Source: a virus
Strand: one strand, 5' to 3'
IMG/VR virus record: IMGVR_UViG_3300047388_000140
Coordinates: 1 to 48,008 of that record
Length of the DNA: 48,008 bases
Positions 42,418 through 48,008 of this stretch are shown piece by piece (within the stretch, counting starts at the first letter, position 1; each line of letters starts with the position of its first letter). The notes under the pieces are model-generated. The model was not told the DNA's origin. It made no database searches and saw only the letters and a list, made by a program, of their open reading frames with translations. Made by a program: the position numbers and the translations under genes.

Positions 42418-42785
42418 AGGAATTCGTTTGGGAGTTCAGTTGTCCAAAGGGATGGGAAGTGATCGGCAGATGGGGCGACGGATTCCAGGTCCGGCAAAAG
42501 AACGGCGGATTGCGGCTGCTGATCGATTGCGAATTCAAGTCGGACGGAAAGCCGTGGTTGCACGTCAGTTACTCCCGTAAGGACTGGACTCCCAGTCACG
42601 CTGATACGGTAATGGTGAAGGCGGACTTCATCGGCGAGCGATATGCTTACGCAGTGATGCCGCCGAGTTCCGTTTATGTCAGCATCCATCAGCACTGCCT
42701 GCATTTATGGGCGTGCATGGAAGGCGACGGGCGCATATTGCCAGAGTTCAGTGCGGAAGTCGAGAACGTTGGCAGGTCGATATGA
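42414..42785 (+). CDS. Hypothetical protein in sugar cassette
   Basis: A 123-residue protein from ATG 42414 (ATGA overlap). Beta-rich with many Trp residues (VWEFSCPKGWEVIGRWGD, LLIDCEFKSDGKPWLH). No motif recognised. Coupled to the last glycosyltransferase. Confidence 0.6.
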   Translation: MKEFVWEFSCPKGWEVIGRWGDGFQVRQKNGGLRLLIDCEFKSDGKPWLHVSYSRKDWTPSHADTVMVKADFIGERYAYAVMPPSSVYVSIHQHCLHLWACMEGDGRILPEFSAEVENVGRSI

Positions 42786-43657
42786 AGATCGTCGCTATCA
42801 TGCCGGTGCGAAATGAAGACTGGGTGATCGGTCTGTCGGCACGCGCAATTCTGAAGTGGGTCGATGAACTGGTGATTCTTGACCACTGTTCGACGGATCA
42901 GACTCGTGAAATAGCTTGCGAGATCATGTCCGAGTTTCCAGACCAGATCACCGATTTGATGGATACAGACCCTATTTGGAAAGAGATGGCGCACAGGCAG
43001 CGGCTGCTTTCGATGGCTCGGGACCAAGGCGCAACACACATCGTCACCATCGACGCCGACGAGGTCGTATCGGCGAATCTCGTCCCGCACATGCGCGACA
43101 TCGTAGCGGACATTCCGCCCGGCTTCATCTTGCAGCTTCCTTGGATCACCTGCCGAGATTCGATTCATCAGCAGCATCGGAGCGGGCTCTGGGCCGAACA
43201 GCACGCGAGCGCGGCGTTTGTCGATCAGGATCTCTACTTTTGGGCACAGCGCAACGGATATGACTTTCATCAGCGGGCGCCGATGGGCCGTCCAGAGAAA
43301 CCGTTCAAGCCGATCTCGCACGTCGGCGGCGGAATTCTACACTTGCAGTACTCCAGCCGTCGCCGACTGCTCGCTAAGCAGGCGCTGTACAAAATGACCG
43401 AGGTAATCCGCTGGCCGGGGCGCGATACGCTGGAGACGATCAACGGGCGCTACAATTGGTCGGTATACGGCGACCCGAAGCGCCAGCAGACGTTTGATCT
43501 GTCGCCGGTGCCGCCCGAATGGTGGGCCGGTTATGCAGACCTCATGCAGTACTTGAACGTTGACGCCGAGCCTTGGCAGGAAGCGGAATGTCGTAAGCTG
43601 ATCGAGTTCTTTGGGGCTGAGAAATTCGCAGGTCTGGACCTCTTCGGCGTCGTGTAA
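42782..43657 (+). CDS. Glycosyltransferase family 2
   Basis: A 291-residue GT2 enzyme from ATG 42782. IVAIMPVRNEDWVIGLSARA, WVDELVILDHCSTDQT, and THIVTIDADE (DAD at 91-93). A clear GT-A fold without a membrane helix. It is the last gene of the cassette; the following promoter restarts transcription for the portal. Confidence 0.85.
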   Translation: MKIVAIMPVRNEDWVIGLSARAILKWVDELVILDHCSTDQTREIACEIMSEFPDQITDLMDTDPIWKEMAHRQRLLSMARDQGATHIVTIDADEVVSANLVPHMRDIVADIPPGFILQLPWITCRDSIHQQHRSGLWAEQHASAAFVDQDLYFWAQRNGYDFHQRAPMGRPEKPFKPISHVGGGILHLQYSSRRRLLAKQALYKMTEVIRWPGRDTLETINGRYNWSVYGDPKRQQTFDLSPVPPEWWAGYADLMQYLNVDAEPWQEAECRKLIEFFGAEKFAGLDLFGVV

Positions 43658-43692: not shown

Positions 43693-45645
43693 ATGAGACG
43701 CCGCGTAATGAATTGGCTCGCCAGCGCTTACCGCGCACTTCAGCCCACACGAACATACCAGGAAGAATACCGCGCAACATCGCAGGCGCTGGCCGAATCG
43801 CAGGCGCGCGAGGATCGCTATCGCGCCGACTACATCGAGCGGGCTGCCGAACTGATCGAGGCGCGGCAGATGGCCGGCGCTGGCCCGTGGCTGGTAGCCG
43901 AAGCGCGCGGCCAGGTCAACACACCAGGTGCCACGCTGCGCGAGGCAACGCCGCTTGATAGCCAAGGCGCGTACGGCGATATCGAACTCGCGCTGCAGAA
44001 CGTCGAATGGCGTCGACAGGTCAATTTGTCATGGCTTGAGTTCTCGCGATGGGGAATCCAGCAGATCATTCTGATTTCGCGGCTCTACTACCTCAAGAAC
44101 CCCATTTGCCGGCGCCTTATCGACGTCTGTGCGGCGTACGTATTCGCCCGCGGCGTGGAGGTGACGACGAACGACGACGCAGCGAACGACACGCTGAAAG
44201 AGTTCTTTGAGCGGAATAAGACCGTACTAGGACAGAACGCGCTCGTCGCGCACGAAAGGAGCAAGGACACTGACGGGAATCTATTCTTTGTCTTCTTCGC
44301 CGACAAGACGGATAAGGGCCTGACGTCGATCCGCACGATCGACGCAACGGAGATTGCGGATATCGTATGCGACCCGGACGACGCGGATACGCCGTGGTAC
44401 TACATGCGGCAGTGGGATCAACGGAATTTCGACCCGAACACCGGCATTACCGATATGGTCTGCGAGAAGGCTTGGTATCCCGCACTCGGCTATGAGCCGG
44501 CCAACGGCCCGAAGACGATCAACACGATTCCGGTCATGTGGGACAAGCCGGTCCTACACCGGAAGACTGGCGCGGTCGCGAAATGGCACTTCGGCTGCCC
44601 GCGGATCTACCCGATGCTGGACTGGGCGCGGGAGGCAAGGCGGTTTCTTGAGGCGTGCGCCAGCGTCCGACAGAGCCTTTCTCAGTTTGCGCTGACTCTC
44701 ACCACGAAGGGCGGCCAGCAGGCGCTGGAAGGCGTCAAGGCGCAGATGTCCACCACTGTCGGGCCGACGGCTCAGATCTGGGACCAGAACCCGCCAGCCG
44801 GTCGCGGTTCGACCTTCGCCAGTGGGCCGGGCACGAAGCTCGAAGCATTCAAAACCAGCGGCGCGGGCTTCAGTCCGGAGGACGTGCGCCAGTACAAGCT
44901 TATGTGCTGCATGGTGAAGGGCGTGCCGGAAACGTTTCTGGCCGATGTCAGTACCGGCAATCTGGCTACGGCGACCAGCTTGGACCGACCGACGGAGACG
45001 ATGTTCCTCGAGCTCCAGGAAAGCTGGCGCGAGGATCTGGCGACAATCGCGAAGTACGTTCTGCAAGTCAGCCAGGGTGCACCGTCCGGCGCGTTGCGCG
45101 AAACAATCCGGAAACAGCGCGAGGGCGTCCAATTCCGGATTATTGAATGTGTTCGTAAGTTCAACAAAAATACGGGGAAATGGTTTTACGAAGCGATGAA
45201 GCCGTCTACCGAAAGCGGCGATATCGAGATTCAGGTCAACTTCCCCAACATCCGAGAGGGCGACATCCCGGCATTGGTGCAGGCGACGGTCGAGGCCATG
45301 ACGCTCGGCAACAAGTTCGGGCAGGTAGCAGGCATCGACGAGAAGACTGGAGTCAAGCAACTGTTCGACCTCCTGGGCGTAGAAGACGGCGACGTGATCG
45401 CCGAAGAGATGTACCCGGACGGCACGTACACCAATGATCGCCAGGCGCAGAAAGACGCACAGGCGGAAGTGGACGCCAAGATTGCAAGCGCGATGCCGCA
45501 ACCGTCCGCGCCGGGCGGAAAGCAGACACCGGTCAAAAAGATCGAGGCAGCATCGCAGCGGCTGGCCCGCGCGTTACGCCTGCTGGAGCGAAATGGACAT
45601 AGCAGAGAAGCTGAAGACGTTGAATCCGCTGGACCTGTTCGATGA
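43693..45645 (+). CDS. Portal protein
   Basis: A 650-residue protein. The first 60 residues are a basic helical tail. The core has FSRWGIQQIILISRLYYLKNPICRR and ARGVEVTT, then the long mid-domain with DATEIADIVCDPDDADTP and KPVLHRKTG, and a late stem/crown region (LARALRLLERNG end). This pattern and size fit a large portal family of the DUF935/Mu-like type. It forms the dodecameric DNA gate. It overlaps the small gene at 45593. Confidence 0.85.
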   Translation: MRRRVMNWLASAYRALQPTRTYQEEYRATSQALAESQAREDRYRADYIERAAELIEARQMAGAGPWLVAEARGQVNTPGATLREATPLDSQGAYGDIELALQNVEWRRQVNLSWLEFSRWGIQQIILISRLYYLKNPICRRLIDVCAAYVFARGVEVTTNDDAANDTLKEFFERNKTVLGQNALVAHERSKDTDGNLFFVFFADKTDKGLTSIRTIDATEIADIVCDPDDADTPWYYMRQWDQRNFDPNTGITDMVCEKAWYPALGYEPANGPKTINTIPVMWDKPVLHRKTGAVAKWHFGCPRIYPMLDWAREARRFLEACASVRQSLSQFALTLTTKGGQQALEGVKAQMSTTVGPTAQIWDQNPPAGRGSTFASGPGTKLEAFKTSGAGFSPEDVRQYKLMCCMVKGVPETFLADVSTGNLATATSLDRPTETMFLELQESWREDLATIAKYVLQVSQGAPSGALRETIRKQREGVQFRIIECVRKFNKNTGKWFYEAMKPSTESGDIEIQVNFPNIREGDIPALVQATVEAMTLGNKFGQVAGIDEKTGVKQLFDLLGVEDGDVIAEEMYPDGTYTNDRQAQKDAQAEVDAKIASAMPQPSAPGGKQTPVKKIEAASQRLARALRLLERNGHSREAEDVESAGPVR

Positions 45646-45808
45646 AGATTTGTGCTGCGGACGCGCCCTGTCGAAAGCGCTGAGTTCTGGTTCACTGAAG
45701 CAGAAATCCGAATGGACGCACGACCGTTGCGGCTGTCGCTGGCAGGCGCGGCAGATGTCGGACGGTTCGCGGCATTGGCACCCTATCGTGGAAGTGTGGA
45801 TTTTATGA
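45593..45808 (+). CDS. Small Cys/His protein between portal and gpF
   Basis: 71 residues from ATG 45593 (GGAG 5 nt upstream), overlapping the end of the portal gene. DLCCGRALS and RCGCRW with RHWH could bind a metal. Its stop overlaps the gpF start (ATGA at 45805), which supports both. Function unknown. Confidence 0.6.
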   Translation: MDIAEKLKTLNPLDLFDEDLCCGRALSKALSSGSLKQKSEWTHDRCGCRWQARQMSDGSRHWHPIVEVWIL

Positions 45809-47484
45809 ACTGGAGCAACTGCGTCACGCCTGATTCTGATATGAAGTTTCAGCCATTGATTGAAGCTGCGGACTATCTTTCCGCTTGCATCGAAGCTTCT
45901 ACGAATGGCGGTAAAGGGCTGAAGCATCCAAACCACGCGCGCTACGTCGCACCGGCGCGGCGAAAGATCGAGCGCGTTCTGCGGCATTACTTCCACCGGC
46001 AGGAATCGGCGCTGCTGGCTGAGATCAAGCCGAAGATCGAGGCTTCGAATGCGAACCAAAGCGAACCGATACGAACTTTCCGCGAGGCGTCCAGCGGTGG
46101 CACGCTTTACGCTCACACCATCCTACCGACTAGCATCGCGCCGCTGCGCTTCCCGGTGACTGCCATCGAAACTGAAGAGTTCAACGATGCGATCCGCGAA
46201 GCCATCAAGGGCGCGGCTGCTGGTCTGTCGGCTGGAACCATTGCCGTCGACGATGCCGTTTCCCGCTGGCTGCGCGATAACTCCCTGACGCGCTTGACTG
46301 GCGACTTCTCGACGACAAGCGTCAACCGGCTGCGCGATGCGGTAGCCGACGCCTGGGACCAGGGCGGCAGCTTCGACCAGATAGTGAAAGCGATTCAGGA
46401 CACGTTCGCCGACTTCAGCGATCGGCGCGCGGGCGTGATTGCTCAGACCGAGGTAAACGACGCCTACAACCGCGGACGCATGTACACCGCAGTTCAGGCC
46501 GGATTCGACCAGAAAGCATGGGACCCTGACGGCGAGGCTTGCGCAGTCTGCATGGAGAACGTGGACGCGGGGTTCATCGGGATTGACGACGAGTTCCCCA
46601 GCGGCGACCTCGCGCCGACGGCGCATCCTAACTGCTTTTTGGCGGGTACCGTGATCTCAGCGGGCGGAATTACTGGCTCGTCGATCAGAGAGTACGAAGG
46701 GGAAGTGGTCATCCTTCGAATTACCAACATGAATGATACCGCCGTCACTCCCAATCACCCCATACTCACGCGGGGCGGATGGCGGGCGGCCGGATCGCTT
46801 CAGGTTGGTGACTACATTGCGCAGTGTATCGCTCCATCGAAAGCTGCCATCTTGCTCGACCCAAACGACCACTACATCGAAGCCCGCATCGAGCAGATAC
46901 CGGATTCGCTTTTCATGGCGGGCGGCATGTCTGCCGAAGGCGTGCCAGTTTCCTCCGAAGCATTCCACGGCGATATCGGCTCCAATGGAAAAGTCGATAT
47001 TGTACGGACCGCAGGATCTTTCCCGCGTAGTTGGACTGATGGAGTCGAGAACGGCGAATACAACAGTCTCGGCCTTAGACATAGCAAGCGGGTTGCGTTC
47101 CTTGAACAATGCGCGTTTTTGGAGATGCTCGAAGCTCTGAGTCTTTCCTCTGACGGCATCATGGGCACTGGCAACTTGCGCACAACGGGATTCGGCGGTC
47201 ATTGCGGAAGCTCTCACTACACCGGCCGCGCTTCGGCTGCGCTGATGGAGTCCGAGTGCTCGCCATTGACCGAGAATGAAGCTACGCGTAATTCCGGTCC
47301 TTTGGGAGATTTTCAAAAGGCTCTCTCCTGCCTCGTGCGATTGGTGAAGATCACGAGCATTGAAGTCAGGAGCTTTTCTGGGCATGTTTACAACCTCGAA
47401 ACGAAGGATGGCATCTATTTCGCCAACTCCATTATAACCCATAATTGCGATTGCTCAATCGATTTCCAGAAGGGTGTGGAATAG
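45805..47484 (+). CDS. Minor head protein, Mu gpF-like, intein-containing precursor
   Basis: A 559-residue precursor from ATG 45805 (an earlier in-frame GTG at 45652 runs inside the previous gene). Extein residues 1-276 are a helical gpF/SPP1 gp7-type domain (TAIETEEFNDAIREAIKGAA, GVIAQTEVNDAYNRGR, DGEACAVCMENVDAG). The conserved AHPNCxC end motif is split: AHPN, then a 271-residue intein (277-547), then CDCSIDFQKGVE. After splicing the protein would have 288 residues, a normal gpF length. It binds the portal and helps head assembly or DNA ejection. Confidence 0.88.
   Translation: MNWSNCVTPDSDMKFQPLIEAADYLSACIEASTNGGKGLKHPNHARYVAPARRKIERVLRHYFHRQESALLAEIKPKIEASNANQSEPIRTFREASSGGTLYAHTILPTSIAPLRFPVTAIETEEFNDAIREAIKGAAAGLSAGTIAVDDAVSRWLRDNSLTRLTGDFSTTSVNRLRDAVADAWDQGGSFDQIVKAIQDTFADFSDRRAGVIAQTEVNDAYNRGRMYTAVQAGFDQKAWDPDGEACAVCMENVDAGFIGIDDEFPSGDLAPTAHPNCFLAGTVISAGGITGSSIREYEGEVVILRITNMNDTAVTPNHPILTRGGWRAAGSLQVGDYIAQCIAPSKAAILLDPNDHYIEARIEQIPDSLFMAGGMSAEGVPVSSEAFHGDIGSNGKVDIVRTAGSFPRSWTDGVENGEYNSLGLRHSKRVAFLEQCAFLEMLEALSLSSDGIMGTGNLRTTGFGGHCGSSHYTGRASAALMESECSPLTENEATRNSGPLGDFQKALSCLVRLVKITSIEVRSFSGHVYNLETKDGIYFANSIITHNCDCSIDFQKGVE
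46633..47445 (+). other. Intein inside gpF (271 residues)
   Basis: Class 1-type splicing blocks are visible. Block A: Cys1 in CFLAGTVISAGG after AHPN. Block B: T39 and H42 in TAVTPNHPILTRGGW, followed by SLQVGDYI. Blocks F/G: GHVYNLETKDGIYFANSIIT, then H270 and N271, followed by Cys+1 of the extein. The about 130 residues between B and F are larger than needed for splicing but contain no LAGLIDADG or HNH motif on the sense strand. Instead the antisense strand carries a nuclease gene. Splicing should be active, as Cys1, TxxH, terminal HN and Cys+1 are all present. Confidence 0.93.
46657..47385 (-). CDS. Antisense HTH-Vsr-like homing endonuclease within the intein
   Basis: A 242-residue protein encoded on the strand opposite to the intein. 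Start ATG 47385 has GAGG 8 nt upstream and lies behind a TTGAGC-N16-TATAAT promoter (47458-47431); an earlier ATG at 47442 precedes that promoter. Residues 8-53 form a helix-turn-helix (ESLLKISQRTGITRSFILGQ, then LGLHQRSRSA). Residues about 105-220 are a Vsr-like PD-(D/E)xK nuclease: E106, GPYNIDFS with D131, IAVECFGGNWH with E141 and H148, GRHAARHEKRIRYLLDAG, and VVVVWVE with W175. This is like the Vsr-related EDxHD homing nucleases known near introns and split inteins. It reads codon-for-codon in reverse register to the intein. All core residues are intact, so it is not a chance frame. Confidence 0.87.
   Translation of the reverse strand: MPRKAPDFNARDLHQSHEAGESLLKISQRTGITRSFILGQWRALGLHQRSRSAAGVVRASAMTAESRCAQVASAHDAVRGKTQSFEHLQKRALFKERNPLAMSKAETVVFAVLDSISPTTRERSCGPYNIDFSIGADIAVECFGGNWHAFGRHAARHEKRIRYLLDAGFDVVVVWVEQDGSFRWSDTLRNVVTNLKRSGRPPSAPREYGVIGSDGGIIHVGNSKDDHFPFVLSDRRASNSAR
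47431..47458 (-). promoter_or_regulatory. Antisense promoter of the intein-borne nuclease
   Basis: On the minus strand TTGAGC (47458-47453), a 16-nt spacer and a perfect TATAAT (47436-47431). Predicted start near 47424, giving a leader of about 40 nt before ATG 47385. The -10 is the complement of the codons for Ile-Ile in the intein's NSIITHN end, and the -35 lies in the gpF extein (CDCSI codons). The promoter is therefore complete only when the intein sits at this site. Confidence 0.75.
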
Positions 47485-47933: not shown

Positions 47934-48008
47934 AAAAATCGAGATTTAGTACTATCAGGCGGCGGGGTTTAAAGAATCCCGCCGTTTTGTTTTTGGGTGA
48001 ATAATTTT
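47928..48008. repeat. Terminal direct repeat, right copy
   Basis: Exact copy of bases 1-81. It contains the stop of the 47532 gene and the intrinsic terminator (here 47960-47994). See the left copy. Confidence 0.97.
47960..47994 (+). terminator. Intrinsic terminator (right copy)
   Basis: Same hairpin and T tract as at 33-67, here directly after the stop at 47933. It closes the transcript of portal, gpF and the 47532 gene. Confidence 0.85.

What the first reader, a model, noticed from the sequence alone, without database searches (positions are those of the whole stretch)
46633..47445. Intein whose homing endonuclease is encoded on the opposite strand of the same DNA
Seen: the sense strand reads a full set of intein splicing motifs (Cys1, TxxH, terminal HN, Cys+1) without any sense-strand nuclease. 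The minus strand of the same 0.8 kb reads a helix-turn-helix plus a complete Vsr-like nuclease core (PYNIDFS, IAVECFGGNWH, VVVVWVE). Known: homing endonucleases in inteins are normally inserted in frame between blocks B and F; Vsr-like (EDxHD) nucleases are known beside introns and split inteins. Inferred: here one DNA segment does both jobs on its two strands. The nuclease would be made independently of splicing and of late gpF expression, yet would be inherited with the intein. I do not know a described case.
Basis: partly seen in the sequence, partly recalled or inferred. Interest (0 to 1): 0.97.

Follow-up and report, generated by a model that had tools for sequence, protein, structure and literature searches.

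The report
Intein with nuclease on opposite strand
A self-splicing protein insert (intein) in a phage head gene carries, on the opposite strand of the same DNA, the gene for a DNA-cutting enzyme of the homing-endonuclease type, and the same two-strand arrangement, kept by natural selection, occurs in phages and prophages of many bacterial groups.

Summary
Window 46633-47445 (+) is an intein in a MuF/gpF-like minor head gene; 47385-46657 (-) encodes a 242-residue HTH + EDxHD/Vsr-like nuclease in the codon-aligned antisense frame. It is not a chance ORF: about 125 phage records and seven bacterial genomes hold homologues, and the roughly 40 loci parsed show an intact intein opposite a nuclease ORF. 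Between the N-terminal splicing blocks and block F, substitutions pile up at sense position 1 (the antisense wobble base); in the splicing blocks and exteins, at sense position 3. So one strand conserves the splicing ends, the other the nuclease. The family profile matches the I-Bth0305I catalytic domain (E=3e-7), as does the predicted structure; the sense product there is predicted disordered. The nuclease start codon is the complement of the block-F His codon, with a Shine-Dalgarno beside it. Exact empty sites and extein/intein discordance support mobility. Free-standing relatives abut an uninterrupted MuF gene in Acinetobacter phages, and an unrelated LAGLIDADG-like protein lies antisense in another Gordonia phage intein. 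Splicing, expression and cleavage are untested. A relevant 2025 preprint could not be read, so priority is open.

The parts
45652..47484 (+). MuF/gpF-like minor head protein gene interrupted by the intein (N-extein 45652-46632, C-extein 47446-47484); directly follows the portal gene 43693-45645
   Evidence: Pfam Phage_Mu_F 1.4e-7, PHROG head morphogenesis; portal phrog_10963 1.6e-55
46633..47445 (+). Intein, 271 aa, Cys1 ... His-Asn / Cys+1; inserted before the Cys of the HPN-C motif
   Evidence: Pfam Intein_splicing 4.8e-8; PDB phmmer Mtu RecA intein 1.9e-4; AlphaFold HINT halves, Foldseek top Mtu RecA intein 2imz prob 1.00
46747..46767 (+). Intein block B, TPNHPIL
   Evidence: alignment A4, T39, N41, H42 and T46 invariant
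47380..47400 (+). Intein block F, GHVYNLE; its His codon CAT (47383-47385) is the complement of the nuclease start codon
47422..47445 (+). Intein block G, ANSIITHN; its Ile-Ile codons ATT ATA are the complement of TATAAT
46657..47385 (-). Antisense CDS, 242 aa, HTH + EDxHD/Vsr-like nuclease, codon-aligned with the intein frame and wholly inside it
47257..47358 (-). N-terminal helix-turn-helix (residues 10-43)
   Evidence: helices H10-18, H23-30, H34-43 in the model; HTH_7/HTH_23/HTH_38/HTH_58 families in homologues
46795..47076 (-). Nuclease core (residues 104-197): E106, Y128-N129-x-D131, V140-E141, GGNWH(148), R156/R160
   Evidence: invariant or nearly invariant columns in A1/A3; alignment to 3r3p and 3hrl; alpha-beta-beta-beta-alpha-beta in the model
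47393..47397 (-). Shine-Dalgarno-like GAGGT, 7 nt before the ATG, opposite the Asn-Leu codons AAC CTC of block F
47431..47458 (-). Candidate sigma-70-type promoter: -35 TTGAGC (47458-47453, in the C-extein), 16 nt, -10 TATAAT (47436-47431, in the intein)
   Evidence: 10 of 12 matches; 1 found, 0.7 expected per shuffle; shuffle p 0.02

Best explanation
This is a mobile intein whose homing endonuclease is encoded on the opposite strand of the DNA that encodes the intein. The + strand gives the gpF precursor; the two intein ends fold as a HINT splicing domain and the middle is a probably disordered linker. The - strand gives a separate 242-residue protein with an N-terminal HTH and a C-terminal EDxHD/Vsr-like nuclease, translated from an ATG that is the complement of the block-F His codon and a Shine-Dalgarno opposite its Asn-Leu codons. 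The nuclease most likely cuts inteinless gpF alleles, and repair from the intein-bearing copy inserts the whole element, so both genes spread together. Shown here: both reading frames, their homology, selection on the antisense protein in the middle and on the sense protein at the ends, exact empty sites of homologues, and extein/intein discordance. Inferred: splicing, antisense expression, cleavage of the empty site.
For: Selection: in 22 pairs, core substitutions at sense positions 1/2/3 = 1147/357/707, against 1065/739/2537 in exteins, 196/77/272 in N blocks and 61/35/130 in C blocks. In seven independent clades core pos1:pos3 = 519:318, p=4e-12. Homology: 3r3p E=2.7e-7, 3hrl 8e-7, Foldseek I-Bth0305I and Vsr. 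Sense middle not confidently folded. Spread: 124 phage records by tblastn at E<=1, seven bacterial genomes, one further case in a sample of 399 Pseudomonadota genomes. Start codon: block-F His is CAT in 24 of 27 against 11.8 expected; Shine-Dalgarno of 4+ nt in 27 of 30 against 18.8 expected by synonymous recoding. Exact empty sites: joined exteins 98.6% identical and uninterrupted in E. coli phage KMB35, 100% in Gordonia Jabberwocky and Geodirt. Mobility: Snoke vs SGPC exteins 29% different, intein core 5%. Free-standing Acinetobacter homologue has 12 stops in its complementary frame, embedded ones none.
Against: No experiment: splicing, the antisense transcript and cleavage are all untested. 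The promoter match is modest and is absent in Gordonia phages. The catalytic-type His of GGNWH is absent in many members. Two of 31 elements (L053, L054) have lost the block-F start codon. The start and Shine-Dalgarno signals are partly forced by the conserved HVYNL motif. The window's own lineage has only distant relatives (L006, L007).
Confidence: 0.85

Rival explanations
1. The antisense frame is only a mirror of a conserved sense intein: an open frame by codon bias, with similarity between homologues reflecting the intein.
For: The codon-aligned antisense frame is often open in GC-rich DNA (window alone 10^-1.4; the Pseudomonas locus L010 is open antisense for over 1000 codons). The C-terminal tail of the antisense protein (EYxVIRG) is indeed just the complement of block B TPNHP.
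Against: Core substitutions concentrate at sense position 1, the antisense wobble base, in all seven clades. Antisense identity exceeds sense identity, e.g. 0.75 vs 0.45 for L010/L029. The profile hits nuclease structures. A free-standing homologue exists without any intein.
Confidence: 0.02
2. The antisense nuclease is real but its main job is to exclude competing phages (cutting the inteinless gpF gene of co-infecting phages), with homing a side effect.
For: Nearly identical empty alleles circulate in phages of the same host, so targets are present in co-infections. Nuclease-driven competition between phages is known for other homing endonucleases (own knowledge).
Against: Extein/intein discordance and precise codon-boundary insertion show that the element itself moves. 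The two functions are not exclusive.
Confidence: 0.1
3. Collaborative or passive arrangement: the nuclease gene invaded an already resident mini-intein by landing on its antisense strand and does not itself target the intein site (it may cut elsewhere or be decaying).
For: In Acinetobacter P1068, IME285 and BUCT629 the nuclease is free-standing, convergent with an uninterrupted MuF gene, suggesting an ancestral free-standing stage. The catalytic-type His is variable.
Against: The nuclease lies inside the intein, start at block F and stop near Cys1, in nearly all 40 elements. Purifying selection is strong. The same architecture occurs at different insertion sites in one host gene (BEU35 vs Snoke).
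Confidence: 0.08

Closest known systems
Canonical homing inteins with in-frame LAGLIDADG or HNH endonuclease between blocks B and F (PI-SceI, PI-PfuI)
   Same: HINT splicing domain, class-1-type motifs, a nuclease occupying the B-F interval at DNA level, sporadic distribution with exact empty sites
   Different: Here the nuclease is read from the complementary strand as a separate protein, not as a domain of the excised intein; no sense-strand nuclease exists
EDxHD/Vsr-like homing endonucleases (I-Bth0305I; Dassa et al. 2009, cited in PMC12350094)
   Same: Catalytic core homologous by profile and fold (3r3p), with N-terminal DNA-binding elements
   Different: Known members sit in introns or as separate genes beside split inteins; here the gene lies antisense inside a contiguous intein reading frame
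ShiLan insertion and other hidden out-of-frame HNH endonucleases in actinophage methylases (PMC11855218)
   Same: A homing endonuclease gene fully overlaps an open host-frame insertion
   Different: Same strand in another frame, HNH family, and the host-frame product has no splicing domain
Antisense homing-endonuclease genes in nuclear rDNA group I introns (own knowledge)
   Same: Homing endonuclease gene on the strand opposite the host gene inside a self-splicing element
   Different: An intron is RNA and needs no open frame; an intein must keep a protein reading frame on the opposite strand, so both strands are under protein-level constraint
Gosselin, Arsenault and Gogarten 2025, bioRxiv 10.1101/2025.01.02.630785, actinobacteriophage inteins with non-canonical architecture
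   Same: Title and its citation in PMC11855218 indicate overlapping frames in actinophage inteins
   Different: Text not held; whether it includes antisense nucleases is unknown

Membership tests
Intein (HINT protein-splicing domain) | Nucleophile Cys/Ser at position 1, block B TxxH, block F, terminal Asn and nucleophile +1 | tested here: met
   C1, T39, N41, H42, V252, N271 invariant in 17 inteins; Cys+1 at 47446
Intein (HINT protein-splicing domain) | HINT fold | tested here: met
   AlphaFold pLDDT about 90 in both ends; Foldseek 2imz Mtu RecA intein prob 1.00
Intein (HINT protein-splicing domain) | Insertion at a precise codon boundary with empty alleles | tested here: met
   Uninterrupted exteins 98.6-100% identical for homologues; 825-nt exact difference for Lennon. 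No empty allele of the window's own gene was sought
Intein (HINT protein-splicing domain) | Splices in vivo or in vitro | not testable with these tools
   needs expression
EDxHD/Vsr-like homing endonuclease | Homologous catalytic domain | tested here: met
   3r3p E=2.7e-7, 3hrl 8.3e-7; Foldseek 3r3p prob 1.00, Vsr 1cw0 prob 0.99
EDxHD/Vsr-like homing endonuclease | Conserved acidic residues (helix Glu, strand Asp) | tested here: met
   E106, D131 and E141 invariant in 20 sequences
EDxHD/Vsr-like homing endonuclease | Conserved catalytic-type His | tested here: inconclusive
   H148 present in the window and the GGNWH subgroup, absent in Jerseyvirus, Vibrio and others
EDxHD/Vsr-like homing endonuclease | Cleaves DNA at the insertion site | not testable with these tools
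   needs biochemistry
Canonical homing intein | Endonuclease translated in frame within the intein | tested here: not met
   No nuclease in the sense frame; sense residues 127-232 not confidently folded; nuclease on the minus strand
Hidden out-of-frame endonuclease insertion (ShiLan type) | Same-strand alternative frame, no splicing domain | tested here: not met
   Opposite strand, codon-aligned frame; splicing domain present

The most novel reading that the evidence does not exclude
A general, convergently evolved class of two-strand mobile elements: inteins that keep splicing information on one strand and a homing endonuclease gene on the other, with block F serving also as ribosome-binding site and start codon of the nuclease and block G in some lineages as its promoter -10 box. 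Two unrelated nuclease families (EDxHD/Vsr and LAGLIDADG-like) have adopted it, even at one and the same gene site.
Probability: 0.6. Interest if true: 0.95.

Novelty: new variant of a known kind. Interest (0 to 1): 0.9.

Why it matters
It would be a clear case of fully overlapping antisense protein-coding genes with both products under demonstrable selection, conserved across several bacterial phyla and their phages. It also separates nuclease expression from host-gene expression in an intein, which in-frame homing endonucleases cannot do, and explains why some phage head-gene inteins look like large inteins without an endonuclease. The alleles with and without the element in cultured E. coli and Gordonia phages make both strands' functions directly testable.

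Tried and rejected
Single-sequence searches of the window protein: no PDB hit and only a weak MTES_1575 hit; the signal needed the family profile. Alignment A1 could not seed a collection scan. Chance ORF/mirror hypothesis: rejected by codon-position and identity tests. The absence of TTA/CTA/TCA codons in the core (1 of 1396 Leu/Ser codons against 262 of 1915 in exteins) was not used as independent proof because loci were found through the antisense protein and an ORF is stop-free by definition. The conserved antisense tail YxVIRGxG was discarded as evidence because it is the complement of block B. Acinetobacter P1068 was first taken for a degenerate intein; its MuF gene proved uninterrupted and the nuclease free-standing. 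The promoter consensus is treated as suggestive only. Two intein loci picked as possible counter-examples because their antisense had no tblastn hit proved to carry an EDxHD nuclease (L070) and a LAGLIDADG-like protein (L069) on the antisense strand. A viral-contig scan with the LAGLIDADG-like protein found nothing. Literature: nine searches found no description; preprint 10.1101/2025.01.02.630785 and Dassa 2009 full text are not held.

Full report
WHAT IS THERE. The window is a whole IMG/VR virus record of 48,008 bases. Its portal gene (43693-45645, phrog_10963 1.6e-55) is followed by a MuF/gpF-like minor head gene at 45652-47484 (Phage_Mu_F 1.4e-7). That gene is interrupted by an intein at 46633-47445: Cys1, block B TPNHPIL, block F GHVYNLE, terminal THN and Cys+1, with Pfam Intein_splicing at 4.8e-8 and intein_Cterm above its cut-off. 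No sense-strand endonuclease was detected. On the minus strand an ORF runs from 47442 to 46657. Its codons are the exact reverse complements of the sense codons, so antisense position 3 is sense position 1.

THE ANTISENSE PROTEIN IS A NUCLEASE. Alone it gives only a weak REase_MTES_1575 match (0.006). With homologues the picture is clear: invariant Y128, D131, E141, R160 and nearly invariant E106 in 17 diverse members; E106, Y128, N129, D131, V140, E141 invariant in a second set of 20. The profile matches the catalytic domain of the homing endonuclease I-Bth0305I (3r3p, 2.7e-7), a second endonuclease-like protein (3hrl, 8.3e-7) and several HTH structures. Fourteen of 17 members hit MTES_1575 and 12 hit HTH_7. 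The AlphaFold model (mean pLDDT 83.8) has N-terminal HTH helices and an alpha-beta-beta-beta-alpha-beta core; its best PDB matches are I-Bth0305I (prob 1.00) and Vsr (prob 0.99). The sense intein model has confident HINT halves matching the Mtu RecA intein, and pLDDT below 50 for residues 127-232, which lie opposite the nuclease.

IT IS WIDESPREAD AND IN THE SAME PLACE. tblastn of the antisense protein finds 124 phage records at E<=1 (128 at E<=10), mostly Salmonella jerseyviruses, also Gordonia, Pseudomonas, Klebsiella, Escherichia, Vibrio, Edwardsiella, Haemophilus, Cronobacter, Mycobacterium and others. A genome scan adds loci in Lamprocystis, a Firmicutes MAG, Rubellimicrobium, a Gemmatimonadales MAG, Scytonema, a Solirubrobacterales MAG and Chromatium. 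A sample of 399 Pseudomonadota genomes gave one further independent case (L065). In 40 parsed elements the intein frame is intact and the antisense frame is free of stops from near block F to a few codons inside Cys1 (one exception, L053, has a stop a few codons past block F). A few annotators have called the antisense ORF 'hypothetical protein' (Salmonella phage PK1).

WHICH STRAND IS SELECTED. This is the decisive test. In 22 pairs of relatives, substitutions between the N-terminal blocks and block F fall at sense codon positions 1/2/3 as 1147/357/707. In the N-terminal blocks they fall as 196/77/272, in the C-terminal blocks as 61/35/130 and in the exteins as 1065/739/2537. The core is therefore conserved as an antisense protein, the ends and exteins as sense proteins. 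Antisense amino-acid identity exceeds sense identity in the core (for example 0.75 vs 0.45 for two Pseudomonas-type elements, 0.74 vs 0.51 for Snoke vs vB_St_LL_sp9). Pairs in the total overlap phylogenetically; taking one pair from each of seven independent clades leaves 519 changes at position 1 and 318 at position 3 (p=4e-12), against 91:125 and 35:62 in the N and C blocks.

SIGNALS FOR EXPRESSION. The start codon of the nuclease is the complement of the block-F His codon. That codon is CAT (antisense ATG) in 24 of 27 elements where it is His, against 11.8 expected from other His codons of the same genes; three use CAC (antisense GTG), and one element has Gln CAA (antisense TTG). Opposite Asn-Leu of the same motif lies a Shine-Dalgarno-like GAGG/GGAG/AAGG; four or more matching bases occur in 27 of 30 elements against 18.8 expected under synonymous recoding (p about 1e-4). 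In the window a sigma-70-like site, TTGAGC-16-TATAAT, spans the intein/C-extein junction 45 nt before the ATG. A perfect TATAAT is found in 9 of 29 elements, in several from the Ile codon ATA in block G; Gordonia elements lack it. The promoter is suggestive only.

MOBILITY. Joining the exteins of Snoke or of Fosterous finds uninterrupted, 98.6% and 100% identical proteins in E. coli phage KMB35 and Gordonia phages Jabberwocky, Ailee and Geodirt. Exteins and inteins have different histories: Snoke and SGPC differ by 29% in extein DNA but about 5% in the intein core, whereas Fosterous and Angelicage differ by 3% in the extein but 12.6% in the core; Sedona has a Vividuovirus extein with a Sampson-type intein (sequences). 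BEU35 carries its element at another site of the same host gene as Snoke. This is the pattern expected of homing.

FREE-STANDING RELATIVES. In Acinetobacter phages P1068, IME285 and BUCT629 a homologue is present; in P1068 and BUCT629, which were read, it lies next to, and convergent with, an uninterrupted MuF gene. Freed from the intein, it uses TTA, CTA and TCA codons, giving 12 stops in the complementary frame. This supports an origin from a free-standing endonuclease aimed at the MuF gene that later merged with an intein; the order of events is inference.

A SECOND FAMILY IN THE SAME LAYOUT. Gordonia phages Lennon, Sitar, Nordenberg, Thing3, SchottB and Barsten have a different intein at the Vividuovirus site. 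Its codon-aligned antisense frame encodes a 196-residue LAGLIDADG-like protein. Stand-alone relatives are annotated endonucleases of cyanophage PP (2e-6) and Caulobacter phages (8e-6); I-MsoI matches at the motif (0.0013); Pfam LAGLIDADG_3 is only 0.26, so the family call is moderate. Lennon and Barsten differ more in sense (72.1% identity) than in antisense (92.3%) over the same stretch of about 590 bases. Exactly 825 bases are missing at that place in empty relatives.

LITERATURE. Full-text searches found in-frame homing inteins, EDxHD nucleases in introns (PMC12350094) and same-strand out-of-frame HNH insertions without splicing domains (PMC11855218), but no antisense endonuclease inside an intein. 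One preprint on actinophage inteins with non-canonical architecture (10.1101/2025.01.02.630785, cited in PMC11855218) is not held and may anticipate part of this for Gordonia phages.

VERDICT. The observation and the interpretation stand. The architecture and the selection on both strands are shown by sequence evidence. Splicing, antisense expression and homing cleavage remain to be tested. The parts are known; the two-strand arrangement is a new variant, possibly a class of its own.

Noticed in passing
L069 2372-3196 (+) and 2483-3073 (-), Gordonia phage Lennon: A different intein at the same MuF site carries an antisense LAGLIDADG-like protein; antisense identity to Barsten is 92.3% against 72.1% for the sense reading of the same DNA.
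   Followed up: partly
L016 2315-3208 (+) and 3202-3978 (-), Acinetobacter phage P1068: Free-standing homologue of the antisense nuclease, convergent with and overlapping by 7 bases an uninterrupted MuF gene; candidate ancestral state.
   Followed up: yes
L017, Escherichia phage BEU35, versus L003, phage Snoke: Same kind of element at two different insertion points of one and the same head gene; each phage is empty at the other's site.
   Followed up: partly
L037 Sedona, L008 Fosterous, L018 Vivi2, L069 Lennon: Near-identical Gordonia MuF genes carry three different inteins at one site, or none (Geodirt, Jabberwocky), a natural set of alleles for homing tests.
   Followed up: partly
L053 and L054 (Gemmatimonadales MAG, Scytonema MAG): Block-F His is replaced by Tyr (TAC), removing the usual nuclease start codon; L053 also has an antisense stop just after it. 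Start site there unknown, possibly decaying.
   Followed up: no
L003 2992-3621, Snoke annotation: The record's intein mat_peptide (630 nt) disagrees with its own note of a 273-residue intein and with the 816-nt intein found here.
   Followed up: no
window 42707-43657 (+): A weakly GtrB/glycosyltransferase-like gene (2.4e-4) sits just before the portal gene.
   Followed up: no
window 47957-47987 (+): Strong terminator-like hairpin (14 pairs, T-rich tail) close to the right end of the record, after the small ORF that follows gpF.
   Followed up: no
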